Positions 2,564 through 20,237 of a stretch of DNA of 40,765 nucleotides are shown in pieces. A program made the translations under genes and the position numbers. The notes under the pieces were generated by a model. That model ran no database searches. It was given only the letters and a program-made list of their open reading frames with translations, and was not told where the DNA came from. Every line of letters starts with the position of its first letter. Position 1 is the stretch's first letter. The DNA lies in assembly GCA_903889905.1 (NCBI GenBank), contig CAISZI010000008.1:1-40765 (forward strand), in the 5' to 3' direction. The stretch comes from Candidatus Wirthbacteria bacterium (GTDB lineage: Bacteria; Patescibacteriota; CG2-30-54-11).

Positions 2564-4666
2564 ATGCTAAGTATGTTTTTCTCCCCCAAATCCGTCGCCG
2601 TCATCGGTGCCTCCAAAGACCCATCCAAAATCGGGCACCAGGTTTTGCGCAACATCATCAAGGGCGGTTTCGAAGGTTCGATCTTCGGCGTCAACCCCAA
2701 GGAAACTGAAATCCTCGGCAAACCAATCTTCCCCTCTGTCAAAAACATCCCCGGTGACCTCGACCTCGTTGTCATTGTCATCCCCGCCAAATTTGTCTTG
2801 GACGCGGTCAAGGAATGCGTGGAAAAAGGTGTCCGTGGCGCCGTGATCATCACCGCTGGATTTAAGGAAACGGGCAAAGAAGGCGCCGACGTTGAAAACC
2901 AGATTCGTACCGTCGCCAAAGCAGGCAACATGCGCATTGTCGGCCCCAACTGCCTCGGCCTCATCTCCTCCAAAGGCAAACTCAATGCTTCTTTCGTCGG
3001 CGAAATGGCCACTCCCGGCAATGTTGCTTTCATCTCCCAATCCGGTGCACTTTGCTCCGCCGTTCTGGACTGGTCCCATGGTGAAAACGTGGGATTTAGC
3101 ATGTTTGTCTCGGTCGGCAACAAATGTGACGTGGACGAAGCCGACCTGCTGCGGGAATTTGCCAATGACAAAGGCACGGAAGTCATCATGGTCTATGCCG
3201 AAGACATCCACCATGGCCGCGCCTTCATGGAAGTCACCGAAGAAGTCAGCTGCCTCAAACCCATCATTGCCCTCAAATCCGGCCGCACCACCTCTGGCAT
3301 GGCTGCCATTTCCTCGCATACCGGTTCTCTGGCTGGTGACGACAAAGCCTATACCCAGGCATTCAAACAACCCGGCGCCATCCGTTGCCGTACCATTGCC
3401 GACCTTTTTAATTTGACCAAAGCCTTTGCCCTGCAACCTCGACTCACCGGTCCCAACATCGCCGTCATCACCAATGCAGGTGGTCCCGGCGTGATGGCCA
3501 CTGACGCCGTTGAAGATGCCAAATTGACCCTCGCCAAACTCGCTCCCGAGACCACCGCCGCGCTCAAGGGTTTTTTGCCAGCCGCAGCCAACACACACAA
3601 CCCGATTGACGTCCTCGGTGATGCGATGCCTGACCGCTATGAATTTGCGCTCAAACAAGTCCTGGGTGATCCCAATGTCGACGCCGTCCTCGTCATTTTG
3701 ACGCCCCAGTCGATGACCGACGTCGAAGGCACCGCGCATGCCGTTGGTGAAGCAGCACGCGGTTGCAAAAAACCCGTGCTCTGTTCCTGGATGGGTGGCC
3801 GTCAGGTTGCCAAGGCCGAAGAAATTTTCAAACAGTATAGTCTTCCCCACTACCTCTATCCCGAATCCGCGGTCAAAGTGCTGCAAAAAATGTACACCTA
3901 CAAAAAACGCTGCGATCGTCCCCACAAATCCTGGCTGCTTCCCGACAACACCGCGACACGCAATGCTGCCGCCAGTCAGATTATTGCCGATGTCAAAGCC
4001 ACCGGCCGCACGACCTTGAATGAATTCGAAGCCCGCCAGGTCATGCACGCCTATGGTATGCCCGTGAGCCAAGCATCACTGGCCAAGACCGTCGACGCAG
4101 CCGTGAGTGCAGCAGACGAAACCGGCTATCCTGTGGTGCTCAAAATTGTTTCACCCGACATCCTGCATAAATCCGACATCGGCGGCGTCAAAGTCAACCT
4201 CAAGTCCGCCGACGAAGTACGCGCCGCCTTTGACAGCATTATGACCAGCTGCCGCGCCGCCATGCCCCAGGCCGACATCCACGGCATCCTCGTTGACAAA
4301 ATGCTACTCACCCAGAACAAGCAAGTGATCATCGGCATGAAGCGTACCCCGAATTTTGGCCCGATGCTGATGGTTGGTCTGGGTGGCATTTTTGTGGAAA
4401 TTCTCAAAGACGTCTCTTTCCGCCTCGTCCCACTCGATCGGGATGAAGCCAAAAAAATGATCTCCGAAATCAAGACCTATCCCATCCTGGCTGGCACCCG
4501 TGGCGAAAAGCCCTATGACATCGACACCCTCGCCGACTGCCTCGTCAAACTCTCCAACCTTTGCATTGACTTCCCCGAAATCAAGGAACTCGACATCAAC
4601 CCCATCATGCTCTTCCCCCAGGGCGAAGGCGCCAATGGCGTGGATGTAAAGATTCTGCTGAGCTAA
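2564..4666 (+). CDS. ADP-forming acetate/acyl-CoA ligase, fused alpha-beta subunits
   Basis: Predicted to convert acetyl-CoA, ADP and phosphate to acetate, CoA and ATP, a substrate-level phosphorylation step. The 700 residues start with a CoA-binding Rossmann domain (SVAVIGASKDPSKIG near residue 10). A succinyl-CoA-ligase-like domain follows, with the phosphohistidine motif SSHTGSLAG (His252). The C-terminal third is an ATP-grasp domain (VVLKIVSPDILHKSDIGG, near 530). Both subunits are thus in one chain, a known arrangement. The ATG at 2564 has GAGG 8 bases upstream; the longer frame from 2438 begins in a repeat and adds 42 non-homologous residues. With the PDH complex at 16-21.6 kb it would close a pyruvate-to-acetate route. 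Other short acyl-CoA substrates are possible. Confidence 0.93.
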   Translation: MLSMFFSPKSVAVIGASKDPSKIGHQVLRNIIKGGFEGSIFGVNPKETEILGKPIFPSVKNIPGDLDLVVIVIPAKFVLDAVKECVEKGVRGAVIITAGFKETGKEGADVENQIRTVAKAGNMRIVGPNCLGLISSKGKLNASFVGEMATPGNVAFISQSGALCSAVLDWSHGENVGFSMFVSVGNKCDVDEADLLREFANDKGTEVIMVYAEDIHHGRAFMEVTEEVSCLKPIIALKSGRTTSGMAAISSHTGSLAGDDKAYTQAFKQPGAIRCRTIADLFNLTKAFALQPRLTGPNIAVITNAGGPGVMATDAVEDAKLTLAKLAPETTAALKGFLPAAANTHNPIDVLGDAMPDRYEFALKQVLGDPNVDAVLVILTPQSMTDVEGTAHAVGEAARGCKKPVLCSWMGGRQVAKAEEIFKQYSLPHYLYPESAVKVLQKMYTYKKRCDRPHKSWLLPDNTATRNAAASQIIADVKATGRTTLNEFEARQVMHAYGMPVSQASLAKTVDAAVSAADETGYPVVLKIVSPDILHKSDIGGVKVNLKSADEVRAAFDSIMTSCRAAMPQADIHGILVDKMLLTQNKQVIIGMKRTPNFGPMLMVGLGGIFVEILKDVSFRLVPLDRDEAKKMISEIKTYPILAGTRGEKPYDIDTLADCLVKLSNLCIDFPEIKELDINPIMLFPQGEGANGVDVKILLS

Positions 4667-4695
4667 TCTCAAGTCAACGACTTTCGCTATTTCAG

Positions 4696-4727
4696 AAAAG
4701 GGCAACACTAGGTTGCCCTTTTTTATT
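4696..4727. terminator. Strong, probably bidirectional intrinsic terminator
   Basis: The arms AAAAGGGCAAC and GTTGCCCTTTT pair perfectly over 11 bp around loop ACTAG, and a T-rich tail follows on the plus strand. On the minus strand the hairpin is followed by TTTTC. It therefore sits correctly to end both the acyl-CoA ligase gene and the leftward 1300-residue gene. Confidence 0.9.
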
Positions 4728-4756
4728 ACGAATTTAGTTTCTTTGACTAACTTACT

Positions 4757-7700
4757 TCAATTGGGCGAACCTGCACCATCCATTGAACTTAATATTTTTT
4801 GAATTGCACCAGCTTGGGATTCATCTGAGCTTAATTCGTTCAATGCTCTCCTGATCGGGTTTAACAATTCATCCATTTGTCCCTTAGCAAAGACACCTAC
4901 CTGAGCTGCATCACTTACGTCTTTGACGAGCCATGTGCAATCACTGACGAAACGCTGCACATCTATTCTTTTGTTTCTCCAGTCTTCTGCTATACGCTGA
5001 TATACTATCGAAATATACTCTCGAATCCCTTTTGTAAGACTCGAAGGATCAATGGGATCTTTAACTTCAACACTAATTGTTGCAGCAAATCTATTCAGAA
5101 TTGCTCGTCTTGAATTTGCCTCCATTTTCTTTTTCATCATTTCCATTCTCAATGCAAACAGCTCGTTATGCCTTGGCATATTTACAAGACTAGTTGCCGC
5201 TTCCATCAATTCATCTGTTGGCTCCTGACCATTCTCTACCATTTGGTAAACAATCGCTTCAAGGCTGAGCATGAGCTTTATTAACGGTTCAGATTTGGAA
5301 TGCTGGTATCCAAGTTTTTCTATCTCGTCACGAATGTCACGCCAGTCAGTATTCCCAGTATCAACTTGTATTTGCAGTGCTGCAATCTCGTCTTCTTCTC
5401 GCGCAAAAGTTCGGAGCGACTCTCTGCCTCTGTATGTATCCCAGCGTTCAATTGGAAATTGATCCTCAGGAATCGAATATCTCTTCATGATTTGCTTGGC
5501 ACTTATTGACAAAGTACTTATTGGATTCTCAGTGTTATCTGTCTCCATATTCATTATTACTTTTCCGATCTTTTGCAATAACTCTTCCGACAGCTTCTTC
5601 GCCGTCGCGTCATCCAACAACTTCACATCACCAGCTCTCCTGATTAATTCAATCACAGCCCCAACTTGTTTCACGTATCCTTCCATCCCGGCTGCATCTT
5701 TCAAAGCTAGTGGTAGATTTCCTAGGCGTTCACTCAGCTTCTGCGACACCATGTCTGCTGTTACTCCATCACTCTCAATATTAAATCCAGGAGCCAGATC
5801 TTTCATATAATGAGTTTGTTGCTCTTGTTGATATTTATTCTCTGCCAATTTTTTCGACAAAGCATTCAGGTGGTATTCTTGAGTATATAATTCTAATTCC
5901 GTGGCAGCAGCCATTCCCACGTGAATCAAATCAGCATTTGCGCTCTCGCCTTTGCTCTGTTCTGTCGTTGCCAATGCCAACAACTTTTGAAAGAACTGCC
6001 GTTGTTGTTCAGGATTACTTTTTAAGCGCCTAATGGCTCCCAAGACTCCTGACCATTGACCGCTCGAAATAAGGTCAGTGATGTTTTTTAATTCTTCTTC
6101 CGCAGCCTTTTGTTTCGCCAATTCTTCGTCGGCACGTTGCTTTTCAATCAATTCTAATTGTCGTTGCTTCTCAGCCTGACGTGCATCTTCCTGGGCCTTT
6201 CGCTCTGCTGCTACCTGTTCTCGCTTAAATTTATTTAATACTGCTGCATCTCCGCTGTAATGCAACGCGTATTCTGCTTTACAGCCGATTTCTAATAAAT
6301 TCGCGTCTGTATTACCAGAATTAAAATCGCTCAAGATAGCCGGATAAATCTCTCGCCAGAGTTGTCTTTGTATTAAATCAGTGTCAATTAGTCCAACCAA
6401 CAAATCAATGTTTTTCCATTGTTTGTCACGTATCGCGTTTCGAACGCTCGAAATATTTTTTGCCTGATACTCGGCGGCTCGACGATTAGCTACTTCCTTT
6501 TCCACCTCAGGTCGACGTTTTTTCCTCCAGTCGTTACCCCGCAGGCCCTCATCAAACTTGACGACATAACTAATCTTATCACGAGCTTCTTTAGCATCAC
6601 GAGCTTCTTCAGCAATACGAATTTTATGCATGCTCTGCATTATCTGATCTGCTTGATTCAAAGGCCCTTCAGCGCGAGTATCAGAATAACCGTGTCGGAT
6701 CAAAACAGTTTGTGTCAGGTTGAGCATTTCCTGATAGGTCGCAAATGCTGTTGGCGGATCGAGAAATCCAACGTCTACCGCAGTTTGAACATTACGCTGC
6801 AATGCTGCCATCACTATAGTCCATGTGTCCATGTTAATGCCTTTTCCAGCGCTTACCTCTTCACGATATGCCAGTTCGCTGTCAATTTTCGCCTTGACTG
6901 TTTCACTGTTGATAATTCCCTCTGCTATATCCAACGCTTTGCCCAATGCAGCAATTTTCACTGCTCGTTCCTGCTGGTTTTCCAGGTCTTGTTGTCGACT
7001 CGCCAATGCTGGTGGAGTGGCATGCTTGAGATCACCCATGACTTGCGTCAACACGCTGATCTCATTGTCCGCCAGACTGTTATGCGCAAGCTTTGCACTT
7101 AGGGCCGTCTCAATTCCCTGGTAAATCCACGCGCTTGCCTCAGGGCTGTGCTTGATCTGAAGTGCTGCTGTCATTGCCTCAGTCCACTTCCCTTGGGCGA
7201 CGAGATCATCAATACTGGCAATGAGTGGTTTCTCCAAGAAAGCATCCACTTGTTGCTGTAGCAACGTATCAGTGATATTTTTCCGAGCCGAATTCAATTC
7301 TTTCGACTTGTCAGGATCGGACAAAATACTTTTTTGACTGATGGCAATCATATCCAGAAATAACTTATTTCTTTTTTGTTCTACCATCACCTGATCTATC
7401 CCGGCCAGCCTTCTCCCTGAGTTACCGACGCGATTGCTTAAATGCTGAATGGCTATTTTTGCAAAATAAAGTCGAGTTTTAATTACATTTTGCAACTCCT
7501 GCGTCGGCGTTAAAAGTTGTCTCGTTTCAAGATCAAATACGTCTCCCTTTGGCGTAAAATTTTCCAGAGACATGGATGCAGTTTTGGTCATATGATTTTC
7601 CAGGTCCTGTACCTGAGCATCGAAATATTGTCTGGCCATTTCCTTTTCAACTGTTTCAGCAATTGATTTTGAACCTGGAATGGGTTTTCTCGCCATTACA

Positions 7701-8659
7701 AAATAACGACCTCTAATTGCCGCCTTAAGGTCTCCAATACTCTGATAACGAAGTTTCAATTTCGAATCTGCGTCAGCCACGCCATCCCCTAATAGCTGTT
7801 CAAAAGCGCGGATACGATCATCATGGCTGAAAGAACTTCGTCCCAGTACTGAGGCAATAATGGTATTGGCCATTCGCTTTTGGAAGCCTTGCTCAGCATG
7901 GTCTATTACGGCATTCGTCTCATCCGCGGTTTGTGTTACCAATTCTTTGACTTTTGCGACAATTACCTCCAATTTACACTCTGGCGTATCGCATAAAGTC
8001 ATCAATTCTTGTTGCATTATGTCAAATTGAACTGGAGCCTTGCGGGCGTCAGTTGCATTATCCAATGCGGGAATTTGATAAAATTCTGAAAGTTTAGAAA
8101 GCATCGCCAGATTCTCACCCATTTTGGCATTGCGAGTTGCTTCCAGGATTCGTTGACGAATTTCAGGCTGAGACCTCGCTGCGCGCAGAAAATCAGCCCT
8201 TTTGGCGGGATCCCCGTACTCTTCCTTCCCCATGGCCTCTTGCAAAATCTTTTCTGAGAACACCCGTTCGACTTTACGATCCCGACGGTCGACAACACTC
8301 TTCTTGGCTTTTTCCAGCGCATTTTGGACCACTTCGGCGACATGCGGTGGCATTTGCTCTAGCGTTTCGAGAGCAGCATTCAATTTCGCATCCATCGCGT
8401 CTATTTCTGCCGTTACATCATCATGCATATAGTCGACGACATGTCCCAAATCTCTGGCATCAACGGGTTTGGCTTTTTCGTTATTAAATTCATTCAATGC
8501 CAAACTGTCAAAAATCTTACCTAGATAATGGGCGACAGTTTGCTTCTCGATCTCACTAAGATCAGTCTGCTGCACAACCTCACGGCGAGCAATACTTTCG
8601 ATACCAGACCACAGCTGTTTGGGATCAGAATGCGATTCGATACTCATTGCGTCTGTCAC
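4757..8659 (-). CDS. Giant (1300 aa) all-helical repeat protein of unknown function
   Basis: I do not recognise this protein. It has no signal peptide and no membrane segment, so it is probably cytoplasmic. The sequence is rich in Q, E, K and A and reads as almost entirely helical. A charged coiled-coil-like stretch rich in AERKAQEDARQAEKQ lies around residues 807-858. Helical-hairpin motifs centred on a tryptophan recur: LVAQGKW (about 492), AIRDKQWKN (about 748), LISSGQWSG (about 868) and GNTDWRDIRD (about 1105). Only four cysteines are present. The gene lies 18 bases downstream of the 107-residue gene, probably on one transcript. Its start is GTG at 8657-8659; an ATG at 8645-8647 is the alternative, and neither has a clear ribosome binding site. 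The DNA is AT-richer than the metabolic genes: 21 of 60 bases are G or C at 5041-5100. A scaffold role is only a guess. Confidence 0.85.
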   Translation of the reverse strand: MTDAMSIESHSDPKQLWSGIESIARREVVQQTDLSEIEKQTVAHYLGKIFDSLALNEFNNEKAKPVDARDLGHVVDYMHDDVTAEIDAMDAKLNAALETLEQMPPHVAEVVQNALEKAKKSVVDRRDRKVERVFSEKILQEAMGKEEYGDPAKRADFLRAARSQPEIRQRILEATRNAKMGENLAMLSKLSEFYQIPALDNATDARKAPVQFDIMQQELMTLCDTPECKLEVIVAKVKELVTQTADETNAVIDHAEQGFQKRMANTIIASVLGRSSFSHDDRIRAFEQLLGDGVADADSKLKLRYQSIGDLKAAIRGRYFVMARKPIPGSKSIAETVEKEMARQYFDAQVQDLENHMTKTASMSLENFTPKGDVFDLETRQLLTPTQELQNVIKTRLYFAKIAIQHLSNRVGNSGRRLAGIDQVMVEQKRNKLFLDMIAISQKSILSDPDKSKELNSARKNITDTLLQQQVDAFLEKPLIASIDDLVAQGKWTEAMTAALQIKHSPEASAWIYQGIETALSAKLAHNSLADNEISVLTQVMGDLKHATPPALASRQQDLENQQERAVKIAALGKALDIAEGIINSETVKAKIDSELAYREEVSAGKGINMDTWTIVMAALQRNVQTAVDVGFLDPPTAFATYQEMLNLTQTVLIRHGYSDTRAEGPLNQADQIMQSMHKIRIAEEARDAKEARDKISYVVKFDEGLRGNDWRKKRRPEVEKEVANRRAAEYQAKNISSVRNAIRDKQWKNIDLLVGLIDTDLIQRQLWREIYPAILSDFNSGNTDANLLEIGCKAEYALHYSGDAAVLNKFKREQVAAERKAQEDARQAEKQRQLELIEKQRADEELAKQKAAEEELKNITDLISSGQWSGVLGAIRRLKSNPEQQRQFFQKLLALATTEQSKGESANADLIHVGMAAATELELYTQEYHLNALSKKLAENKYQQEQQTHYMKDLAPGFNIESDGVTADMVSQKLSERLGNLPLALKDAAGMEGYVKQVGAVIELIRRAGDVKLLDDATAKKLSEELLQKIGKVIMNMETDNTENPISTLSISAKQIMKRYSIPEDQFPIERWDTYRGRESLRTFAREEDEIAALQIQVDTGNTDWRDIRDEIEKLGYQHSKSEPLIKLMLSLEAIVYQMVENGQEPTDELMEAATSLVNMPRHNELFALRMEMMKKKMEANSRRAILNRFAATISVEVKDPIDPSSLTKGIREYISIVYQRIAEDWRNKRIDVQRFVSDCTWLVKDVSDAAQVGVFAKGQMDELLNPIRRALNELSSDESQAGAIQKILSSMDGAGSPN

Positions 8660-8677
8660 TTATATTAAAGTTGAATT

Positions 8678-9001
8678 CTATTTAACTTGCTGCATGGATT
8701 CCAGCAGCGCATCAATTTGCAATGTGTCCATAGCATCATAAAAGCCCTCCTGAATATGATGCGTGTGATGACGAATAAGTTGCAAGACTTCCATATATTG
8801 TGACAGCAACTTTTTGATTTCCTGTTTGCTGTGTTTGATTTGCAATACAGAAAGGTTGTCTTGTTGGGTTATTTCATCCACTTTTTCCTGCATGATTTGC
8901 CGTGCCTGGTCCACTGCCAAATGGGCTTGACTCAATAATTGCTGGGCTTCGGTGATGCTGACAACGGCTGTCTGCAACAATAATTGATGATGCTTGTCCA
9001 T
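8678..9001 (-). CDS. Small helical protein (107 aa), unknown function
   Basis: I do not recognise this family. The protein reads as two or three long amphipathic helices with heptad-like leucine and isoleucine spacing, rich in glutamine. It has no membrane segment and no signal peptide. A histidine cluster, IRHHTHHIQ, lies near residue 80. It is the first gene of the leftward unit, with the giant helical protein 18 bases downstream, so the two may form a complex. AAGG lies about 9 bases before the ATG, and an extended -10 promoter lies about 35 bases upstream. Confidence 0.75.
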   Translation of the reverse strand: MDKHHQLLLQTAVVSITEAQQLLSQAHLAVDQARQIMQEKVDEITQQDNLSVLQIKHSKQEIKKLLSQYMEVLQLIRHHTHHIQEGFYDAMDTLQIDALLESMQQVK

Positions 9002-9034
9002 AGGAATTTACCTTTATATTTAGCCTATCATTCT

Positions 9035-9043
9035 ATTATATCA
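9035..9043 (-). promoter_or_regulatory. Extended -10 promoter for the leftward unit
   Basis: On the minus strand the sequence reads TGATATAAT, a perfect TATAAT preceded by TGn. No consensus -35 lies at the usual distance, as is common for extended -10 promoters. The predicted transcript starts about 25 bases before the 107-residue gene. Confidence 0.6.
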
Positions 9044-9055
9044 CGAGGTCAAACC

Positions 9056-9084
9056 GGCTTACCGGATAAATAATCCGGTGAGCC
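9056..9084. promoter_or_regulatory. Inverted repeat between the divergent promoters
   Basis: The arms GGCTTACCGGAT (9056-9067) and ATCCGGTGAGCC (9073-9084) pair over 12 positions, with one G-T, around loop AAATA. The repeat lies just upstream of the leftward -10 and about 50 bases before the rightward -35. It could be an operator for both units or a structural insulator. No repeat of this sequence was noticed elsewhere in the window. Confidence 0.55.
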
Positions 9085-9131
9085 TTTAATTTCTATCAAG
9101 GATTTCCTGAATTCTCTTTACGTCATCAACC

Positions 9132-9160
9132 TTGTTCAATTCCCAAATTGTCCTTATAAT
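9132..9160 (+). promoter_or_regulatory. Sigma-70-type promoter for the rightward unit
   Basis: TTGTTC (9132-9137) and a perfect TATAAT (9155-9160) are separated by exactly 17 bases. The expected start near 9167 gives a leader of about 27 bases before the TTG start of the 77-residue gene. Confidence 0.7.
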
Positions 9161-9193
9161 TAAAGGATTTACTTACCAAAGGGATAATTTTCT

Positions 9194-9427
9194 TTGTTTA
9201 ATCAACACAAAGACATTCTTGATTCGTTGCTAAATGAATACGAACAGATCAGAAAATCATTTCTGACCAGTTGGCAGCAGACGGAAAGTGTCCCAAACAG
9301 TTTGACCATCACCCAAAAAATCGACCACTACCAGCAGCTGCACGCATGGTACTTCGACCAAAGCAGCCGCATCCATGACCAGCTCAACCAATTAATCACC
9401 ATGATCAACAACGATGACAGCCAATAA
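9194..9427 (+). CDS. Small helical protein (77 aa), unknown function
   Basis: I do not recognise this family. The protein looks like a helical hairpin: helix at about residues 3-26, a loop containing SWQQTESVPNS, and helix at about 40-72 rich in glutamine, histidine and aromatic residues. It starts with TTG at 9194; AAAGGG lies 10 bases upstream and a good promoter precedes it. Its last 14 bases overlap the metallopeptidase gene, so the two are probably translationally coupled. The analogous size and helical character of the 107-residue protein on the other strand suggest that each side of this locus carries a small partner protein. Confidence 0.7.
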   Translation: MFNQHKDILDSLLNEYEQIRKSFLTSWQQTESVPNSLTITQKIDHYQQLHAWYFDQSSRIHDQLNQLITMINNDDSQ

Positions 9428-10703
9428 TTATTCAAGCGAACCTCCCCAATGGGGACCGGAACTAATGGGAATGACTACCCCGTCCAATGCAGACAAGCGT
9501 GACGGTCGCGGGGATGCGACGGAACAACCAGAACAAGCGAAACTTGATCAACTGGTTACCGAGCTCTCCACCCACGCCGATCTCGTGGATGGCGCCATGG
9601 CAAAGGATTTCAACCTCATGAAAAAAGCCTTCGCCGTGCTGGAGGAATTGGTCCACAAGGATAGCTCCCCAGAACCAAACGTTCCCGACACAACAACTAC
9701 AACACGCATTTTTACCACCAACGACATTCCCGATACTCCTTCGAAACAACAGGCAGCTTGCGATCAGATTGAATTCTGGGAAGGCATAAAAATCGGTGGT
9801 AATCGTGCAATCGTCCGTACCGAAGAGCTTAAAAATCTTCTCTTTACCACAACCGAAAATCCCAAAATCAAGTTCTATCATGTTGCTGACGGCCCCCAAC
9901 TGGATGCCCAACAATACCAAAAACAAGCCGATCAGGTTGCCAACCTGATTGATGGGGGTGCAACCGCGTGCGAACAATTACAGATACTGATGCTTCCAGA
10001 TTCAAAATTCGCACCCGCAAGAAGTGGTGGTTCCGTGGAAAAAGAACCTCGTATATTTCTCTGTCAGGATAATCCCAATCTGAGATATGTCTTCAACCAC
10101 GAATATGTTCATCAATATCTCAAATGGAAATATGGTGATAGTACAGTTACGGCTATTGTTGAAGGTGCTGCGACACGCTTTGCCCGCCTCGTTGACCCCA
10201 GCGACCAATTCAACAACATGGAACGATATTCAGGATACGCGGACGTTGATAAATTGAAATTAGCCAATAGAACTGTAGGACGATCCAATACTGAAATGCT
10301 TGAAAATGCAGGGAAACCCGATGCGACAGAAGCTGAAAAATACGATACGAGCTACCGCTTTGGCTATGAATTAACGGGATTTATATTGGGGACTTATGGT
10401 CCGGAAGAAGGTAAAGCGATTTTCCTGGATATCTACCAGTACACCTGTCGCCAAAATATAATCCACAACAAAACAGGTGAGACCCTAGTCAAAAATGGCC
10501 AGCGCCTCGGTCACAGCCGCGACATCATGGAACAGGCTGTGAGGACTGTCCTGGAGAATCACCAAGCCGGGATCAAGTCAGCACAGCAAATGTTTCAGGC
10601 ACAAACCGGGCAGGCCAAAGAATTTATTACTGATCCAACTCACTTCTTCGCAGGTCTGGATCAATACATGAAAGACAGGCTTCCAATTATTGCTGCCAGC
10701 TAA
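9414..10703 (+). CDS. HExxH zinc metallopeptidase-like protein (gluzincin / peptidase MA type)
   Basis: Residues 229-233 read HEYVH, a zincin zinc-binding and catalytic motif. Glu250 in VEGAATRFARL lies 17 residues after the second histidine, as expected for the third ligand of a gluzincin. The later stretch YRFGYELTGFILGTYG (near 323) resembles the helix that follows in peptidase-MA-like proteins. Residues 1-115 are polar, proline- and threonine-rich in part, and carry no signal peptide, so the enzyme is either cytoplasmic or exported by a specialised route. The start ATG lies inside the upstream 77-residue gene and has no clear ribosome binding site, which fits translational coupling. The substrate is unknown. 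The giant helical protein or one of the small helical proteins is a possible target, by inference only. Confidence 0.75.
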   Translation: MTANNYSSEPPQWGPELMGMTTPSNADKRDGRGDATEQPEQAKLDQLVTELSTHADLVDGAMAKDFNLMKKAFAVLEELVHKDSSPEPNVPDTTTTTRIFTTNDIPDTPSKQQAACDQIEFWEGIKIGGNRAIVRTEELKNLLFTTTENPKIKFYHVADGPQLDAQQYQKQADQVANLIDGGATACEQLQILMLPDSKFAPARSGGSVEKEPRIFLCQDNPNLRYVFNHEYVHQYLKWKYGDSTVTAIVEGAATRFARLVDPSDQFNNMERYSGYADVDKLKLANRTVGRSNTEMLENAGKPDATEAEKYDTSYRFGYELTGFILGTYGPEEGKAIFLDIYQYTCRQNIIHNKTGETLVKNGQRLGHSRDIMEQAVRTVLENHQAGIKSAQQMFQAQTGQAKEFITDPTHFFAGLDQYMKDRLPIIAAS

Positions 10704-11360: not shown

Positions 11361-11439
11361 TATTTACAAACGCCTCCACGTCATCTCCACAATCGCCTGT
11401 TAAGGTTTGGCTCAGGATTATCAAAAAAGGGGAATTCAC

Positions 11440-12675
11440 ATGCAAAAGCGCTGGCTTGTCATTGCCGCAGTGGTGGTGTTGGGCGCAGGCGGCTACATCG
11501 TTTATAAAAGCGGCAAAGGAAGCGCCTCAACCACGCGCTACGTGACCCAACCAGCCGCGATGGGCACACTTACGATTTCGGTTTCCGGCAGCGGTAACGT
11601 CATCGTGACCAATTCTGCCAATGTAGTACCAACCCAGAGCAGCGGCACGATCTCGAACCTGACCGTCAAAATCGGCGACAAAGTCACCGCTGGTCAAACA
11701 CTTTTTGATGTTGTTAGCGATGCGGCTCAGAATCAGTCGACTTTAAACCAGCTCTATTCATCCTACCTGCAAGCCAAACAATCCGTGGCCAATGCGCAGA
11801 CATCCGCCACGCAGGCGCAGATTGACTTACAGACGGCCAATAATCAGAACGCCGCTCACCCCAATGCGGTTCTCCCCACCCAAATCCAGCTTTTACAACT
11901 CAAACTCAATTCCACCCAGGCAGCGCTGGCCTCAGCCCAGTCCAACACCAATACCGCCTGGACCAATTACACCAGCCAAAAAACTGCCATTGCCAATACT
12001 GCCGTGACCGCCCCCATCGCCGGCACCATCACCGCGATCAATGTCGCAAACGGCGGCACAATCGGCAGCACCAGCTCAACTTCCACCACCAAAAGCAGCA
12101 CAACCAGCAGCAGTGCCGCCGTGGTCATCACCGACTTCAGCACACTGGAAACGCAGGCCTCGATCAATGAAGTCGATATCCCCTCGGTCGCTGTTGGCCA
12201 GAAAGCATCGGTCACTTTCACCGCTATCCCCACCCTGACGCTGACGGGCAAAGTCGCCAGCATCGACAGCACCGGCACCTCCAACCAGGGTGTCGTCACC
12301 TACAACGCCTACATCACCTTTGATAGCGCCAGTCCGCTTGTCAAACCCGGCATGAGCACTTCCGCCACCATCACGACGCAAGTCAAACAAAACGTTCTAT
12401 TGGTTCCCGCTGCAGCCGTCAAAACCCAGGGCAGCAATACCTATGTGCAGGTGCTGGATAGCAATAACCAACCGACCAATGTCACGGTCCAGACTGGACT
12501 TTCGGATGCCACAGACACGGAAATCACTGCCGGCATTACCGCTGGACAAAGTGTCATCACACAAACCATCACCTCAACGGTTAAATCTTCGACTTCCTCC
12601 ACCACCACGCGCATACCCGGACTGACCGGAGGCGGCGGTACCTTTGGTGGCGGTGGTCGTGCCCTCGGGAATTAG
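11440..12675 (+). CDS. MacA-like periplasmic adaptor (HlyD/RND membrane-fusion family)
   Basis: The adaptor subunit of an ABC export system, anchored by one N-terminal membrane segment (about residues 4-21). The barrel-sandwich half near residue 62 (SGTISNLTVKIGDKVTAGQ) is followed by a coiled-coil hairpin at about 85-185. The second lipoyl half (VTAPIAGTITAINVANGG) and a beta-barrel domain come next. A serine/threonine-rich insert lies at 210-227 and a glycine-rich tail (GGGGTFGGGG) at the C-terminus; both are unusual. The ATG at 11440 has a GGGGAA about 6 bases upstream; the longer frame from 11407 lacks support. The gene is followed after 11 bases by the ATPase gene. The exported substrate is unknown. 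Confidence 0.88.
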   Translation: MQKRWLVIAAVVVLGAGGYIVYKSGKGSASTTRYVTQPAAMGTLTISVSGSGNVIVTNSANVVPTQSSGTISNLTVKIGDKVTAGQTLFDVVSDAAQNQSTLNQLYSSYLQAKQSVANAQTSATQAQIDLQTANNQNAAHPNAVLPTQIQLLQLKLNSTQAALASAQSNTNTAWTNYTSQKTAIANTAVTAPIAGTITAINVANGGTIGSTSSTSTTKSSTTSSSAAVVITDFSTLETQASINEVDIPSVAVGQKASVTFTAIPTLTLTGKVASIDSTGTSNQGVVTYNAYITFDSASPLVKPGMSTSATITTQVKQNVLLVPAAAVKTQGSNTYVQVLDSNNQPTNVTVQTGLSDATDTEITAGITAGQSVITQTITSTVKSSTSSTTTRIPGLTGGGGTFGGGGRALGN

Positions 12676-12686
12676 GAACCAAACTC

Positions 12687-13367
12687 ATGATCGAAATCAA
12701 GGACGTCAGCAAAATTTATCACACCGGCGGCGAAGAAACCGTTGCCCTGGACCACGTCTCGCTCAAAATCAACGACGGTGAATTTGTCGCGATCGTCGGC
12801 CCATCCGGGAGTGGAAAATCAACGATGATGCACATCCTGGGAGCGCTGGACAACCCGACCACCGGCCAGTATCTGATCGACGGACAGGATGTGGCCAAAC
12901 TCAAAGACGACCAATTAGCCAAAATGCGCAAAAACAAGATTGGTTTTGTCTTCCAGGCGTTTAACCTTTTGCCACGGGCTACCGTGATGCGCAATGTCAC
13001 CCTGCCGCTAATTTATGCTGGAGCTCCACAAAAGGAACGGGAGCAGAAAGCCACGGCCGCACTCGCAGCAGCCGGTCTGGACAAATCCAAATACAACAAT
13101 CATTCCAACCAGCTTTCTGGCGGTCAGATGCAACGTGTCGCTATTGCCCGCGCCCTGGTCAACGATCCATCTCTGATCCTGGCCGATGAACCCACCGGAA
13201 ACCTGGACAGCAAAACCAGCCACACGATCATGACCACACTGCAGGCGCTTAACAAAAAAGGCCATACCATTGTCTTGATCACCCACGAACTCGATATCGC
13301 CGCCTATGCCTCACGTGTCATCTCGATCCGCGACGGCAAACTAGAACATGACAGGAAGAACAAATGA
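12687..13367 (+). CDS. ABC transporter ATPase, MacB/LolD type
   Basis: The 226-residue nucleotide-binding subunit of a MacB-like exporter. Walker A is GPSGSGKST near residue 38, the signature is [15 protein letters not shown] near 142, and Walker B with its glutamate is [13 protein letters not shown] near 164, with the switch histidine in LITHELD. The TGNLDSKT sequence after Walker B is typical of the LolD/MacB/FtsE group. The stop overlaps the permease ATG by 4 bases (ATGA), so the two are coupled. ATPase and permease are separate chains here, unlike the fused proteobacterial MacB. Confidence 0.95.
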
Positions 13368-14581
13368 GCATTACCGATTTATTTTCCGAAACATTCTGGG
13401 CGCTGACTGGCAACAAAATCCGTACCGCCCTCACCATCTTAGGTATCGTCATCGGCATTGGTTCCGTCATCACCATGGTGGCCATCGGCCAAGGCTCGCA
13501 AGCTGCAATCGAAAACAGCATTGCCGCCATTGGTTCCAACCTGCTCATCGTCACCCCTGGCGCACAACGCGGCGCAGGCGGATTCAGCGCCGGTCGCGGT
13601 TCCGCCCGCACCCTGACCCAGGCTGATGCCGATGCGATCAAATCCACTGTGACCAATACGAGTGGCGTCGCCCCAGAACTTACAAGCCGTTATCAAATTG
13701 CGGCTAAAGGCCAAAACACCAACACCTCGGTCACAGGCACAGTCCCTGATTATCTAACCGTTCGCAATGTCCAAATAGCAACAGGCACTTTCTTTGCCGA
13801 CAGCCAGGTCAGTAGCGACGCCAAAGTCGCTATCCTGGGCCCAACTACCGTGACAGATTTATATGGTACCGCCGATCCGGTCGGACAAACCATCCGCATC
13901 CGCAATATTGATTTTCAGGTGATCGGCACCACGGTTGCCAAAGGTGGGACAGGCTTTAACAATCCCGATGATATCGTTTACATCCCCATTTCCACCGCAC
14001 AACGCTTTCTCTCTGGCGGCACTTATGTTTCCCAAATCAGCATCGCAGCCAAAACCCAAAAAGTCATGTCCGATGTGCAGCAACAAATCACCGCCCTGCT
14101 GGATCAACGCCACAAAATCACGAGCAGCGCGACGGCCGATTTCTCGGTCATCAACCAGGCTGACATTGCCGGTGCCGCGACCAGCACTACCAATACACTG
14201 ACTTTACTACTCGCCTCGACTGCCGGTATTTCACTGTTCGTCGGCGGCATCGGCATCATGAACATGATGCTGACTTCGGTGACAGAACGCACCCGTGAAA
14301 TCGGCCTGCGCAAAGCCATCGGTGCCACCAATGGTGACATCAGTAGACAATTTCTGATGGAAGCCATCATGCTGACGTTTATCGGTGGTGCGATTGGCGT
14401 TGGCCTGGGATGGGCGGCTGCCCTGGCTCTCAAACAGTTTGCCAATGTCAGCACACAAATCTCCATCACTTCCATCATTGCCGCCTTTGCCGTTTCGGCA
14501 GTGGTTGGCATTATCTTTGGCTATTACCCGGCGCGCCGGGCTTCGCTCCTGAAGCCCATCGAAGCCCTCCGATACGAATAA
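13364..14581 (+). CDS. ABC transporter permease, MacB/FtsX type
   Basis: The 405-residue membrane subunit. The first membrane helix lies near residues 20-45 after the conserved NKIRTALTILGIVIGIGSV. A large extracellular MacB core domain spans about 50-270. Three C-terminal membrane helices form the FtsX domain, including GGIGIMNMMLTSVTERTREIG and the final PARRASLLKPIEALRYE. This 4-helix topology is that of mechanotransmission-type exporters, which move substrates already outside the membrane or extract lipoproteins and peptides. It belongs to the same operon as the adaptor and ATPase. Confidence 0.93.
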   Translation: MSITDLFSETFWALTGNKIRTALTILGIVIGIGSVITMVAIGQGSQAAIENSIAAIGSNLLIVTPGAQRGAGGFSAGRGSARTLTQADADAIKSTVTNTSGVAPELTSRYQIAAKGQNTNTSVTGTVPDYLTVRNVQIATGTFFADSQVSSDAKVAILGPTTVTDLYGTADPVGQTIRIRNIDFQVIGTTVAKGGTGFNNPDDIVYIPISTAQRFLSGGTYVSQISIAAKTQKVMSDVQQQITALLDQRHKITSSATADFSVINQADIAGAATSTTNTLTLLLASTAGISLFVGGIGIMNMMLTSVTERTREIGLRKAIGATNGDISRQFLMEAIMLTFIGGAIGVGLGWAAALALKQFANVSTQISITSIIAAFAVSAVVGIIFGYYPARRASLLKPIEALRYE

Positions 14582-15286: not shown

Positions 15287-16024
15287 ATGACTACCGCGAC
15301 TGACTTCAACATCGTCATTTCCACCTCCACCGATCCCTACCGGAATCTTGCCCTGGAACAGAATCTGTTTCAACAAATCGAGCCTGGTCAGGTATATTTC
15401 ATGCTGTGGCAGAACCAGGACAGTGTCATCATTGGTAGAAACCAGAATCCCCTGCAGGAAATTAACCTTTCCTACCTGCGCCTGCATGACATTCAACTGG
15501 CGCGACGCATGACGGGAGGTGGTACTGTTTTTCACGATCTTGGCAATTTGAATTACAGTTTTATCACCGACCGTGCTATTTACGATGAAACGCAGCAATT
15601 TGGCCTGATTCTAAGCGCGCTCGCCAAATGGCAGCTCCTGGCCGACCTCAACCACCGCAAAGACCTATTGCTCGGCTCCCGCAAATTTTCCGGCAACTCA
15701 TTTCGCTTTACCTCTCGTCAGGCCCTGCACCACGGCACATTGCTGGTCAGTTCCAACCTCGACAAACTGCAAGCCACACTGAACCCGCAATTTGAAAACA
15801 TTGACACCTCTGCTGTTCGTTCCAACCACACCGCCGTCGTTAACCTCTGCGAACTCAATCCCGTGCTGACAGTTGCCCGACTCAAACAGTCACTTCTGGA
15901 CACGTTTGGCGAGATTTATGGTGCGGCTGACACGTTTGTCATCGACCCCGAGGACATTGTCGAGCTTGATCACGAATATCTGACACATGCTTCGGACGAC
16001 TGGATTTACGGAATGGAATTATAA
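15287..16024 (+). CDS. lplA: Lipoate-protein ligase A
   Basis: Attaches free lipoate to acceptor proteins through a lipoyl-AMP intermediate. The 245-residue chain has RRMTGGGTVFHDLGNLNYSF near residue 73 and the catalytic lysine in GSRKFSGNSFR (Lys133, the number used for Escherichia coli LplA). HHGTLLVSSNL follows near 153. It is shorter than two-domain LplA enzymes and has at most a reduced C-terminal accessory domain. It lies first in the operon with the PDH subunits, one base before pdhA, so its likely target is the E2 lipoyl domain encoded downstream. No lipA or lipB is in this window, which fits scavenging but does not prove it. No good ribosome binding site is visible before the ATG. 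Confidence 0.92.
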   Translation: MTTATDFNIVISTSTDPYRNLALEQNLFQQIEPGQVYFMLWQNQDSVIIGRNQNPLQEINLSYLRLHDIQLARRMTGGGTVFHDLGNLNYSFITDRAIYDETQQFGLILSALAKWQLLADLNHRKDLLLGSRKFSGNSFRFTSRQALHHGTLLVSSNLDKLQATLNPQFENIDTSAVRSNHTAVVNLCELNPVLTVARLKQSLLDTFGEIYGAADTFVIDPEDIVELDHEYLTHASDDWIYGMEL

Positions 16025-16025
16025 T

Positions 16026-17015
16026 ATGACCCAGCACAAAGATTTCCTGACTCGTTTGCTCCGTCAGATGTTGCTTATTCGCCGCTTTGAAGAAAAATCC
16101 GGCGAGCTTTATGGTATTCGCAAAATCGGTGGTTTCTGCCACCTGTATTCGGGCCAGGAAGCCGTAGCCGTGGGCAGCATCGCGACGCTGGATCTAAGCC
16201 GTGATCACGTCCTGACCGCCTACCGTGACCATGGCCATGCGCTCGCCATCGGGATGGACCCTAAAGTGGTGATGGCAGAATTGTTTGGAAAATCAACCGG
16301 CAGTTCCAAAGGCAAGGGCGGCTCCATGCACCTGTTTGATCCCAATCGACATTTTTGGGGCGGTAATGGCATTGTCGGGGCGCACATTCCGGTTGCCACC
16401 GGTGTTGCGTTTAAAATTCACTACAACGAGGAAGCTGGCGTGGTGCTGTGTTTTTTTGGTGATGGCGCCATTCACCAGGGCGTTTTTCACGAGAGTCTCA
16501 ACATGGCTCGCATCTGGAATTTACCCATCGTCTATATTTGCGAAAACAACCAGTATGGCATGGGCACGGATTACAAACGCGTTTCGGCTGAACCGGATTT
16601 TTATAAACTGGCGCAGTCCTATCGCATGCACGGCGAGCAGATCGATGGCATGGATGTGGAACACGTTTATGACCAAGTGATGGCGGCCACAGCCATGGCC
16701 AGGAAAGGCAACCCCGTTCTACTCGAAGCCAAAACCTACCGCTATCGTGGACACAGCATGAGCGACCCGGCCAAATACCGTACCAAAGAAGAAGTAGACC
16801 AGTTCAAAACCCAGGATCCGATCCTGCACCTCAAGTCCAAGCTGATGAACAACCACGACCTCACCGCCGAAGATTTTGATCAACTTGATCAGGAAGCTAT
16901 GACACAGGTTGAAAACGCAGTAAAATTTGCCGACGAAAGTGCGGCGCCGGCGGTCGAAAGTATTTTTGAAGATGTTTATACCAATAATTCCTCTCCCCCA
17001 CCGGGGGAGAGTTAG
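16026..17015 (+). CDS. pdhA: Pyruvate dehydrogenase E1 component, alpha subunit
   Basis: With E1 beta it decarboxylates pyruvate using thiamine diphosphate and acetylates the E2 lipoyl arm. The 329 residues hold the thiamine-diphosphate motif from GDG (145-147) to ENN (173-175), and the loop YRYRGHSMSDPAKYRT near 242. The ATG at 16026 follows the lplA stop by one base; the longer frame from 15987 runs inside lplA and is unlikely. The last seven residues (SPPPGES) and the stop codon lie within the CTCTCCCC-type repeat that begins at 16991, so the original C-terminus may have been altered by repeat insertion. A branched-chain 2-oxoacid substrate is a weaker alternative. Confidence 0.94.
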   Translation: MTQHKDFLTRLLRQMLLIRRFEEKSGELYGIRKIGGFCHLYSGQEAVAVGSIATLDLSRDHVLTAYRDHGHALAIGMDPKVVMAELFGKSTGSSKGKGGSMHLFDPNRHFWGGNGIVGAHIPVATGVAFKIHYNEEAGVVLCFFGDGAIHQGVFHESLNMARIWNLPIVYICENNQYGMGTDYKRVSAEPDFYKLAQSYRMHGEQIDGMDVEHVYDQVMAATAMARKGNPVLLEAKTYRYRGHSMSDPAKYRTKEEVDQFKTQDPILHLKSKLMNNHDLTAEDFDQLDQEAMTQVENAVKFADESAAPAVESIFEDVYTNNSSPPPGES

Positions 17016-17102
17016 AGAGAGGGGATTCCCCTGACCCAGATTCCTCCCCGGAATTAAATTTCGGAATCCCCCTCTCCTGTATCCTCCCCCCAGTGGGAGG
17101 AG
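16991..17102. repeat. CTCTCCCC-family foldback element
   Basis: The left hairpin is CTCTCCCCCACCGGGGGAGAG (16991-17011, arms of nine). The right hairpin is CCTCCCCCCAGTGGGAGG. Between them, GAGAGGGGATTCC and GGAATCCCCCTCTC are inverted copies, so the unit can fold as a whole. It starts inside the pdhA coding end and fills most of the 105-base pdhA-pdhB gap. A related copy lies at 21634-21705. Confidence 0.8.
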
Positions 17103-17120
17103 AAAAGCAGGAATACCCCC

Positions 17121-18110
17121 ATGTCCCTCCTCACCTTCCGTGAAGCCCTCCGCAATGCCTTGATCGAAGAAATGGACCGCGACCCGACCGTCTTGCTGAT
17201 GGGCGAAGAAGTCGCTGAGTACCAGGGCGCTTACAAAGTTTCACAGGGTCTGCTTGAAAAATACGGCCCCAAACGGATCATCGACACACCCATTACCGAA
17301 GCGGCCTTTACCGGCATCGCTATTGGCGCAGCCATGGCGGGGTTGCATCCGATCGTAGAATGGATGACCTTCAACTTTGGCATTCTGGCGCTGGACCAGG
17401 TGATCAACAATGCCGCCAAAATGCGGTATATGTCAGGCGGCCAGACCAGCATTCCCATTGTCATCCGCGGTCCCAACGGCCCGGCAGAATTTCTGGGTTC
17501 ACAGCATTCACAAAACCTCGCCTCGATCCTCACTCATATTCCAGGTCTCAAAGTAATTTGTCCGGCTACACCCTATGACGCCAAGGGACTACTCAAGACC
17601 GCCATCCGTGACGGCAATCCGGTCATGTTCATGGAAAGCGAACTCATGTACCAGCTGCAGGGTGAAGTGCCGGACAAAGAATATCTGATCCCGTTTGGCA
17701 AAGCTGACATCAAACGTGCTGGCCAGGACGTGACGCTGCTCGCTTATGGCCGAGAGTTGCACACCGCGCTTGCCGCGGCAGAACAACTCGCGACTCAAGG
17801 CATTGACGCCGAAGTCATTGACCTGCGCAGTCTGCGGCCACTGGACAGCGAAACCATTTTTGCCTCGGTTGCCAAAACCAATCACCTCGTGATCGTTGAC
17901 GAAAGCTGGCCAATCGCAAGTCTCGGTTCCTATATCGCGCACCTGGTGGCGCACGATTGTTTTGATCTGCTCGACGCACCGATTGAACTGGTGCAAATGG
18001 AAGACGTACCCATGCCATACAATCATGCACTTGAACTCGCGGTCCTACCTTCGATGGATAAAATCATTACCGCCGTGCAACTTTCACTTTCATCAACGCA
18101 GCAGGCATAA
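17121..18110 (+). CDS. pdhB: Pyruvate dehydrogenase E1 component, beta subunit
   Basis: The partner of PdhA in the thiamine-diphosphate-dependent E1 heterotetramer. The 329 residues include LMGEEVAEYQGAYKVSQGL near 25, the conserved DTPITEAAFTGIAIGAA near 55, and the C-terminal transketolase domain with VDESWPIASLGSYI near 259. EDVPMPYNHALE near 295 is a PDH-type signature. A repeat separates it from pdhA, yet gene order and direction remain intact. Two bases separate it from pdhC. Confidence 0.95.
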   Translation: MSLLTFREALRNALIEEMDRDPTVLLMGEEVAEYQGAYKVSQGLLEKYGPKRIIDTPITEAAFTGIAIGAAMAGLHPIVEWMTFNFGILALDQVINNAAKMRYMSGGQTSIPIVIRGPNGPAEFLGSQHSQNLASILTHIPGLKVICPATPYDAKGLLKTAIRDGNPVMFMESELMYQLQGEVPDKEYLIPFGKADIKRAGQDVTLLAYGRELHTALAAAEQLATQGIDAEVIDLRSLRPLDSETIFASVAKTNHLVIVDESWPIASLGSYIAHLVAHDCFDLLDAPIELVQMEDVPMPYNHALELAVLPSMDKIITAVQLSLSSTQQA

Positions 18111-18112
18111 CC

Positions 18113-19327
18113 ATGGCTAAACCACTCCTCATGCTCGCGCTTTCCCCCACCATGCAGCAAGGCCTGATCGCCAAATGGCTGGTGAGTGAAGGTGACACGA
18201 TCAAATCCGGCGACGTCATCATGGCTGTGGAAACCGACAAAGCCACCATGGAATATGAATCGCCCCAATCCGGCACACTGCTCAAGATTGTGGCTGCCGC
18301 CGGTTCGAGAGCCAGTGTTGGACAGCTTGTTGGCATCATCGGTACGGCGGGTGAAGACTTGACGGCAGTTCTGAAGGAGGCAACCACGCCGGCTGCTCCT
18401 GTTGCCGCAACCACCTCGGCCCCAGTGCTTGCCAAGGCCAAAAATCCCACCCCTTTAAAACGGCCCAATCTGATTTTCAGTAACCGCAAACCCGCTTCGC
18501 CACTTGCCCGCAAGCTGGCCCGTGACGCTGGCCTGAATCTGCTTGCTGTGCAAGGCAGCGGGCCTAATGGTCGTATTGTCAAACACGACGTTGAGGTGGC
18601 CATGCTGCAAGCCTCGGGACGCAAGCTTCAACCCACGCTTGACCTCACCACTTTGCCCAAGGGACACACCTTGCCCTTGAGCGAAAAACGACGCATCACC
18701 GCTGAGCGCCTGAGCCAGTCCATGTACACCGCACCGCACTACTATCTGACAATGGCTGTGGAAATCGACAATCTCCTTGCCACACGCGCTAAACTCAACC
18801 AGGACAGAACCGACAAACTGTCGCTCAATGCCTTCATCCTCAAAGTGGTTGCTGACGCATTGACTGAACATCCCACCATCAACCGCACCTGGGCCAATGA
18901 TCAACTCTATCAGTTTGACACCATCGACATTGCCTTTGCCGTGGCACTCGAGGACGGTCTGATCACGCCAGTCGTACGCGATGCCGGTAGTAAATCGATT
19001 GCACAAATCGACCAGGACATCCGAACATTGGTTGAAAAATCCCGTAACAAGACGATCACCCTGCCTGAATTTACGAATTCCACCTTTACCATTTCTAACC
19101 TGGGTTCATTCGACATCGAAGAGTTTACTGCCATCATCAACCCGCCGGGTTCGGCCATCCTGGCGATTGGCAAAGCCACCCCAACACCCGTGGTGGACAA
19201 GGACAACCAAATCATCATCCGCCAGCTGCTTAAATTAACGCTTTCCTGTGACCATCGTGTCATTGACGGTGCCGTGGGTGCTGCTTTTTTGAAAGCGCTC
19301 AAAAACCTGCTAGAGTATCCCCAGTAG
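18113..19327 (+). CDS. pdhC: Pyruvate dehydrogenase E2, dihydrolipoamide acetyltransferase
   Basis: Core of the complex; it transfers acetyl from lipoate to CoA. There is one lipoyl domain (about residues 1-80) with the modified lysine in ETDKATMEYES (Lys43). After a linker comes a peripheral subunit-binding domain (ASPLARKLARDAGLNL and GSGPNGRIVKHDV, about 125-163). The catalytic acetyltransferase domain (about 175-404) ends with the active-site motif DHRVIDGA (His381, Asp385). The 404-residue length is normal for a one-lipoyl E2. LplA, encoded at the head of the operon, is the likely modifying enzyme. Confidence 0.95.
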   Translation: MAKPLLMLALSPTMQQGLIAKWLVSEGDTIKSGDVIMAVETDKATMEYESPQSGTLLKIVAAAGSRASVGQLVGIIGTAGEDLTAVLKEATTPAAPVAATTSAPVLAKAKNPTPLKRPNLIFSNRKPASPLARKLARDAGLNLLAVQGSGPNGRIVKHDVEVAMLQASGRKLQPTLDLTTLPKGHTLPLSEKRRITAERLSQSMYTAPHYYLTMAVEIDNLLATRAKLNQDRTDKLSLNAFILKVVADALTEHPTINRTWANDQLYQFDTIDIAFAVALEDGLITPVVRDAGSKSIAQIDQDIRTLVEKSRNKTITLPEFTNSTFTISNLGSFDIEEFTAIINPPGSAILAIGKATPTPVVDKDNQIIIRQLLKLTLSCDHRVIDGAVGAAFLKALKNLLEYPQ

Positions 19328-19348
19328 AAACCCTAACAAAGGCACTTG

Positions 19349-20188
19349 ATGAACTGGCTAGTTTTGGCATTGGTCAATATTGTTTCTATTTCGATTGGCA
19401 ATTTATATCAGCGCAAAGCCATGCAAGCCGAAGACAGTGACCCGATCGGCTATGCCATCGTTTTCCAGTTTTTACTGGGTTTTGCTGTGCTGCTGTTTGC
19501 CATGGTAGTCGGGTTCAAACTTCCCCCCATTGCTACGTATCCACTCAATTTTGCCCTGAGCGCCGTGTTCTATGGCATTGGCACGCTTTGCATGTTTCAG
19601 GCCGCCAAGCTGATTGAAGCCTCGGAACTCACCATCATTGCCGCGCTGGGTTCGATGGTCACCATCATTGCATCGGTTATTGTTCTCCATGAAAATTTTT
19701 CGTTGCAACAAGCTCTCGGCGTACTGCTGATTTTTATTGCCATCATCATGGTGCAAAAAAAACGGTCGCTCAAGCTGGATCGCGGTGCCTGGTGGGGAGT
19801 GGTTGGTACCTGCCTCTTTGGACTGGCAGTAGTCAGTGACGTTTTTGTGATTAAACACTTTGATCCTGTTTCGTATGCTGTAGCCATGTGCTTCATGCCC
19901 GGTATTTTGCTGCTATGCTTGTTTCCGCGCAAAATTAAAGTTTTCAAACCGATCGTCAGTTCCGGCCGCAATCTCTTTATCTTTGTTTTTCTATACGCCA
20001 TTCAGGTCATTTCCTACTACGCCGCGCTCGGACTCGGGGCCAATGCCTCACAACTCAGCCCCATTACCCGTGCCCAAATCATACTGACCGTTCTGCTCTC
20101 GGCCATATTCCTCCGCGAACGCGACCGTCTCTGGCTCAAACTCGGCGCTGCCATCCTCACCACAGCCGGCGTACTGCTGATTACGTAA
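19349..20188 (+). CDS. EamA / drug-metabolite-transporter family permease
   Basis: A 279-residue integral membrane protein with about ten hydrophobic helices in two EamA halves (about 1-135 and 145-279). The second half ends with the usual ITRAQIILTVLLSAIFLRERD signature. I prefer the ATG at 19349, 6 bases after AAAGG, over the adjacent TTG at 19346. It sits between pdhC and lpdA in the same direction with gaps of 21 and 49 bases, so it is probably cotranscribed. Its substrate is unknown; export of a fermentation product or uptake of a cofactor precursor would both fit the context but neither is shown. Confidence 0.85.
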   Translation: MNWLVLALVNIVSISIGNLYQRKAMQAEDSDPIGYAIVFQFLLGFAVLLFAMVVGFKLPPIATYPLNFALSAVFYGIGTLCMFQAAKLIEASELTIIAALGSMVTIIASVIVLHENFSLQQALGVLLIFIAIIMVQKKRSLKLDRGAWWGVVGTCLFGLAVVSDVFVIKHFDPVSYAVAMCFMPGILLLCLFPRKIKVFKPIVSSGRNLFIFVFLYAIQVISYYAALGLGANASQLSPITRAQIILTVLLSAIFLRERDRLWLKLGAAILTTAGVLLIT

Positions 20189-20237
20189 TTCGACTTTTTG
20201 TTTGGATGTTAGTTATTTGTTATTAGGATTTATTGAT

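What the first reader, a model, noticed from the sequence alone, without database searches (positions are those of the whole stretch)
4757..10703. Divergent four-gene cluster: giant helical-repeat protein, two small helical proteins and an HExxH peptidase
A 1300-residue soluble helical protein is paired with a 107-residue helical protein; on the other strand a 77-residue helical protein overlaps an HExxH/E metallopeptidase-like gene. All four lack signal peptides and membrane segments. Both units have good promoters back to back, sharing an inverted repeat. The layout suggests a joint system, perhaps a protease with helical substrates or a scaffold, but I recognise no known defence, secretion or toxin system. 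The shared role is inference from arrangement.
Basis: partly seen in the sequence, partly recalled or inferred. Interest (0 to 1): 0.75.

Follow-up and report, generated by a model that had tools for sequence, protein, structure and literature searches.

The report
Two orphan operons, one pair conserved
In an uncultured bacterium of the Candidate Phyla Radiation, a small helical protein and a giant, fast-changing helical protein form a conserved two-gene unit. It sits beside an unrelated small-protein/peptidase unit, so the four genes are probably two separate systems rather than one.

Summary
The four ORFs are real and lie in an AT-rich islet (GC 0.43-0.45 against about 0.51-0.56) of a 2.0-Mb genome in the Ca. 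Wirthbacteria class (CPR). None matches a known family.

They are not a conserved four-gene system. The 107-aa protein has a 39% identical homologue in Ca. Wirthbacteria CG2_30_54_11. There it is followed immediately, with overlapping frames, by a 1163-aa giant. The two giants share only their N-terminal ~130-150 residues; the ~1000-residue bodies are not detectably related. No peptidase is near that pair (TpiA and RidA flank it). The peptidase has one distant relative, in another CPR order, with invariant HExxH and EGxA motifs and no 77-aa partner.

Best reading: the 107-aa helical hairpin is a dedicated partner (chaperone-like) that binds the giant's conserved N-terminal domain; the giant's body is a rapidly diverging helical-repeat scaffold or cargo. 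The h77-peptidase operon is an independent orphan gluzincin-like unit. Binding, export and proteolysis are all inferred, not shown.

The promoter claim is at chance level. The inverted repeat is a real, strong hairpin, but a terminator is as likely as an operator.

The parts
4757..8659 (-). Giant 1300-aa soluble helical protein. Residues 1 to about 150 are conserved in the relative; the rest is not. Three internal ~70-aa repeats at residues 478-547, 735-804 and 855-924.
   Evidence: Orthologue L010:6533-10024 (1163 aa) in Ca. Wirthbacteria CG2_30_54_11.
8231..8659 (-). Conserved N-terminal domain of the giant (residues 1-143), proposed docking site for the 107-aa protein
   Evidence: 29% identity to the Wirthbacteria giant; Smith-Waterman 98 against 31 +/- 5 in shuffles, body 42 against 49 +/- 7. 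The docking role is inference.
8678..9001 (-). 107-aa helical-hairpin protein, first gene of the giant's operon
   Evidence: 38-39% identity to L010:6163-6546; AF2 gives helices 3-46, 52-93 and 96-105, pLDDT 67.
9056..9084 (.). 12-bp inverted repeat (hairpin) between the divergent operons; operator or terminator
9194..9427 (+). 77-aa Q-rich helical protein (TTG start), no relative found
9414..10703 (+). 429-aa gluzincin-like metallopeptidase, HEYVH at residues 229-233 and E250-G251; no signal peptide
   Evidence: Relative L023:739-2037 with HEVAH and EGLA; no Pfam, PDB, NCBIfam or PADLOC match.
4696..4722 (.). Strong hairpin with flanking A and T tracts on either side, probably a bidirectional terminator between the CoA ligase gene and the giant
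   Evidence: -17.9 and -15.3 kcal/mol on the two strands, z -6.5 and -5.1

Best explanation
Two separately evolving accessory operons sit back to back in an AT-rich islet of a Ca. Wirthbacteria-class genome. Operon 1 makes a ~107-aa helical hairpin and, coupled to it, a giant soluble protein. The hairpin most likely binds the giant's conserved N-terminal ~130-150 residues as a dedicated partner or chaperone (inferred). The giant's long helical-repeat body changes so fast that it is a scaffold or cargo rather than an enzyme (inferred). Operon 2 makes a 77-aa helical protein and an orphan gluzincin-like zinc peptidase that probably acts in the cytoplasm or is itself delivered elsewhere (inferred). 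No functional link between the two operons is shown.
For: The 107-aa homologue in G002 (7e-21; named) is followed directly by a 1163-aa giant with a 14-nt overlap. Only the N-termini match (blastp 7e-5; Smith-Waterman 98 against 31 +/- 5, while the bodies score below the shuffle mean). Flanking genes differ, so the pair is kept as a unit. The 107-aa protein is predicted as a helical hairpin. The peptidase relative G359 keeps HExxH and EGxA and the C-terminal LVKNG...R.I.EQ stretch. The low-GC islet covers all four genes.
Against: Only two genomes carry the 107-aa/giant pair, and binding is not tested. The third genome of the class (G001, 68% complete) has no hit. The shared low GC of all four genes could mean they arrived and work together. 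In G359 the peptidase lies 12 bp from the convergent end of another soluble helical ORF, cut at the contig edge, which could be a hidden form of the same association.
Confidence: 0.5

Rival explanations
1. Delivered cargo: the giant (and perhaps the peptidase) are proteins exported without a Sec signal, for example by the Patescibacteria T4SS, and the small helical proteins are their targeting chaperones, much as Lap/PE-type hairpins escort LXG/PPE effectors.
For: The layout of a small helical hairpin upstream of a large protein with a conserved N-terminus and divergent body is that of chaperone-effector pairs (PMC9600955). T4SS is widespread in Patescibacteria (PMC12102498) and essential in a Saccharibacterium (PMC11665869). 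This genome encodes a TM plus TrwB/TraC-like ATPase and a signal-less 3131-aa protein with GT51 and transpeptidase domains, which should act outside the cytoplasm.
Against: No WXG, LXG, Lap or T4SS-signal family match. The conserved [FY]xxx[DE] in the 107-aa proteins arises in 10% of column shuffles. No toxin domain was detected. EssC was not found, but only about 0.83 Mb of the genome was read.
Confidence: 0.25
2. One four-gene system: the peptidase processes the giant or the helical proteins.
For: Divergent adjacency, shared low GC, similar layout of both units. The G359 peptidase also lies beside a soluble helical ORF.
Against: The G002 pair has no peptidase beside it and none was found in that genome. 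G359 has no 107-aa or 77-aa homologue. The G359 helical ORF is not detectably related to the giant.
Confidence: 0.15
3. The giant is a structural scaffold or filament of the cytoplasm and the 107-aa protein is its assembly subunit; nothing is exported.
For: No signal peptide, acidic, helix-rich, internal repeats. Giant soluble proteins recur in this genome.
Against: No direct evidence. A body with no detectable similarity between genera of one family is unusual for a structural protein with conserved contacts.
Confidence: 0.25

Closest known systems
LXG effectors with Lap1/Lap2 helical targeting factors (T7SSb); PE/PPE pairs
   Same: Small ~100-aa helix-turn-helix protein encoded next to a large protein with a conserved helical N-terminus and a variable body; an aromatic-xxx-acidic motif near the end of helix 2
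   Different: No profile match to any WXG, LXG or DUF family, no detected toxin domain, no T7SS found; the N-terminal domain is not an identified LXG domain; different phylum
Gluzincin metallopeptidases with HExxH...EG.A (Pfam Peptidase_MA_2-like; resemblance from my own knowledge)
   Same: HExxH, then E-G-x-A 12-16 residues later, followed by a helical C-terminal part with a conserved YRFG stretch
   Different: No Pfam, NCBIfam or PDB profile match even at permissive E-values; long unrelated N-terminal part; no signal peptide
Giant proteins of CPR bacteria (for example Vampirococcus, PMC8080830)
   Same: Very large proteins of unknown role in a CPR bacterium
   Different: The Vampirococcus giants are inferred membrane/surface proteins; this one has no signal or membrane segment

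Membership tests
Gluzincin (clan MA(E)) metallopeptidase | HExxH zinc-binding motif | tested here: met
   Residues 229-233 HEYVH; HEVAH in the G359 relative
Gluzincin (clan MA(E)) metallopeptidase | Downstream zinc-ligand Glu on the next helix | tested here: met
   E250-G251 invariant in the alignment; ligand role not shown
Gluzincin (clan MA(E)) metallopeptidase | Thermolysin-like fold | tested here: inconclusive
   AF2 mean pLDDT 33.8, unusable
Pfam Peptidase_MA_2 and other curated peptidase families | Profile match | tested here: not met
   No peptidase family at E up to 1 for the whole proteins or 10 for the catalytic parts
LXG/Lap (T7SSb) effector module | Small helical-hairpin partner next to the effector | tested here: met
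   107-aa gene directly upstream in two genera; hairpin model pLDDT 67
LXG/Lap (T7SSb) effector module | LXG or Lap/WXG100 family profile | tested here: not met
   No Pfam or NCBIfam match
LXG/Lap (T7SSb) effector module | EssC-type secretion ATPase in the genome | tested here: inconclusive
   A Walker-motif scan found no FtsK/EssC-type hit in about 0.83 of 1.99 Mb
Known anti-phage defence system | PADLOC profile | tested here: not met
   Only E = 0.016-0.09 chance-level matches
Single conserved four-gene system | The four genes stay together in relatives | tested here: not met
   G002 has the giant pair alone; G359 has the peptidase without the small proteins

The most novel reading that the evidence does not exclude
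A CPR-specific, signal-less delivery module: dedicated helical chaperones dock on the conserved N-termini of giant, hypervariable proteins (and of a peptidase) and hand them to a secretion machine such as the Patescibacteria T4SS. In the same genome a 3131-aa GT51-transpeptidase protein without signal or membrane segment would be another cargo.
Probability: 0.13. Interest if true: 0.8.

Novelty: new variant of a known kind. Interest (0 to 1): 0.42.

Why it matters
The protein cargo of Patescibacteria secretion systems, and how these cells act on other cells, are largely unknown. A conserved small partner plus a giant with a conserved N-terminus and a hypervariable body gives a defined, testable pair. 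The peptidase defines a small orphan family with a recognisable active site.

Tried and rejected
Pfam, NCBIfam, PHROGs, PADLOC and PDB sequence searches gave no convincing match. The PHROG transposase hit to the 77-aa ORF (1e-5) covers only 64 of 990 positions of a helical stretch and I set it aside as a compositional match. Searches of viral contigs, phages and plasmids were negative or chance-level. The G057 'giant' hit is a TraC-like ATPase by its sequence, the G322 '107-aa' hit is in an NYN-type protein, and the weak A2 hits are chance-level. The G359 contig ends were read to rebuild the neighbour of its peptidase: a plausible N-terminal half (C26) was found, but there is no similarity to the window giant. 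AF2 on the peptidase is unusable. Foldseek on the 107-aa hairpin gives only generic helical bundles, best E 0.12.

Full report
Setting. The window is contig C8 of a 1.99-Mb, 97% complete genome in 66 contigs. Its phylum shows CPR-like genome sizes (0.5-1.7 Mb) and its class holds only three genomes, one family, three genera. One of the other two, G002, is Candidatus Wirthbacteria bacterium CG2_30_54_11. The window therefore belongs to a Wirthbacteria-class relative with an unusually large genome for a CPR member.

Observation. All four ORFs are present as described. They are soluble by hydropathy and acidic, and AT-rich: GC is 0.43-0.45 over 4.5-10.5 kb, against about 0.51-0.56 in most of the rest of the window. 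The giant's codon score (0.01) and GC3 (0.40, against 0.60 in neighbours) are atypical, which fits an accessory or acquired gene. A strong hairpin at 4696-4722 separates the giant from the CoA ligase, and a second one at 9056-9084 lies between the divergent operons. Sigma-70-like sites are no more frequent than in shuffled DNA.

The giant and the 107-aa protein form a conserved pair. A search in the class found a 107-aa homologue in G002 (E 7e-21, 39%). Directly downstream, overlapping it by 14 nt, is a 1163-aa ORF with no Pfam match. The first ~130-150 residues of both giants match (29% identity; blastp 7e-5; Smith-Waterman 98 against 31 +/- 5). The bodies score 42 against a shuffle mean of 49, so they are not detectably related, although a forced global alignment gives 25% against a null of 21.7 +/- 1%. 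The neighbours in G002 are TpiA and RidA, so the pair keeps together where the surroundings change, and without the peptidase. Profiles of the 107-aa protein and of the giant's N-terminus found nothing else convincing in 377-380 CPR genomes. The module is so far restricted to this class.

The giant contains three ~70-residue segments that resemble each other (478-547, 735-804, 855-924). These support 'helical repeat' in a moderate way; the segments were first picked by eye and they are not tandem. The 107-aa protein is modelled as a two-helix hairpin with a short third helix (pLDDT 67). Foldseek returns only generic bundles.

The peptidase. One relative was found among 380 CPR genomes: G359, another order, 432 aa, 24% identical overall, blastp 1.5e-11 over the catalytic half. 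HExxH, EGxA and a C-terminal LVKNG...R.I.EQ stretch are kept, so a zinc-peptidase function is likely, but no curated family recognises either protein. In G359 the gene upstream is an Elp3-like enzyme (named from its sequence). The convergent neighbour 12 bp away is the last 241 residues of a soluble helical ORF that is cut by the contig end. A candidate N-terminal half lies at the end of contig C26. Neither half is detectably related to the window giant. This is a suggestive but unproven echo of the window's arrangement.

Mechanism. The two units share a layout (small acidic helical protein, then a larger soluble protein with tight coupling). For the first unit the conserved parts are the small protein and the giant's N-terminus; the variable part is the rest. 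The simplest mechanism is that the small protein binds that N-terminus as it is made. What the giant does then is open: cytoplasmic scaffold or exported cargo. Export has some circumstantial support. T4SS is widespread in Patescibacteria (PMC12102498) and a predicted T4SS is essential in a Saccharibacterium (PMC11665869). The genome encodes a TrwB/TraC-like ATPase. It also encodes a signal-less 3131-aa protein with GT51 and transpeptidase domains whose substrate is normally outside the cytoplasm. The comparison with LXG/Lap modules (PMC9600955) is about layout only: profile membership failed and the [FY]xxx[DE] motif is expected in 10% of shuffles.

Verdict. What remains is a conserved orphan giant/partner pair and an orphan peptidase. 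Main limits: three informative genomes, no deep alignments, poor structure models, and about 42% of the window's own genome read directly.

Noticed in passing
L143:4277-13672 (-), i.e. G000:C40:164277-173672: 3131-aa ORF with GT51 transglycosylase (2115-2282, EDKRF kept) and PBP transpeptidase (2824-3109, SVAK, SHN, KTS) at its C-terminus, but no signal peptide or transmembrane segment by hydropathy (max 1.47); a 175-aa partly helical ORF follows 13 nt downstream.
   Followed up: partly
L124:9721-19539 (-), i.e. G000:C42:9721-19539: 3272-aa soluble helical ORF with no Pfam match; a divergent 96-aa helical ORF starts 150 bp away, an arrangement like the window's. What lies beyond it was not read.
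   Followed up: partly
L142:3727-8817 (+), i.e. G000:C40:143727-148817: 1696-aa soluble, highly helical, acidic ORF with no Pfam match.
   Followed up: partly
L124:5315-6538 (-), i.e. G000:C42:5315-6538: 407-aa ORF with several tandem repeats of about 33 residues (FKDARVGELHGTVATAKTTARNVRNDVVG), followed by a 115-aa helical ORF.
   Followed up: no
window 4501-10500: AT-rich islet (GC 0.43-0.45) in a 51% GC contig, coinciding with the four genes.
   Followed up: partly
window 11407-14581: MacA/MacB-type efflux genes directly downstream of the peptidase region.
   Followed up: no
window 15287-21623: Lipoate ligase and a complete-looking 2-oxoacid dehydrogenase set (E1 alpha and beta, E2, E3), unusual metabolic richness for a CPR genome.
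   Followed up: no
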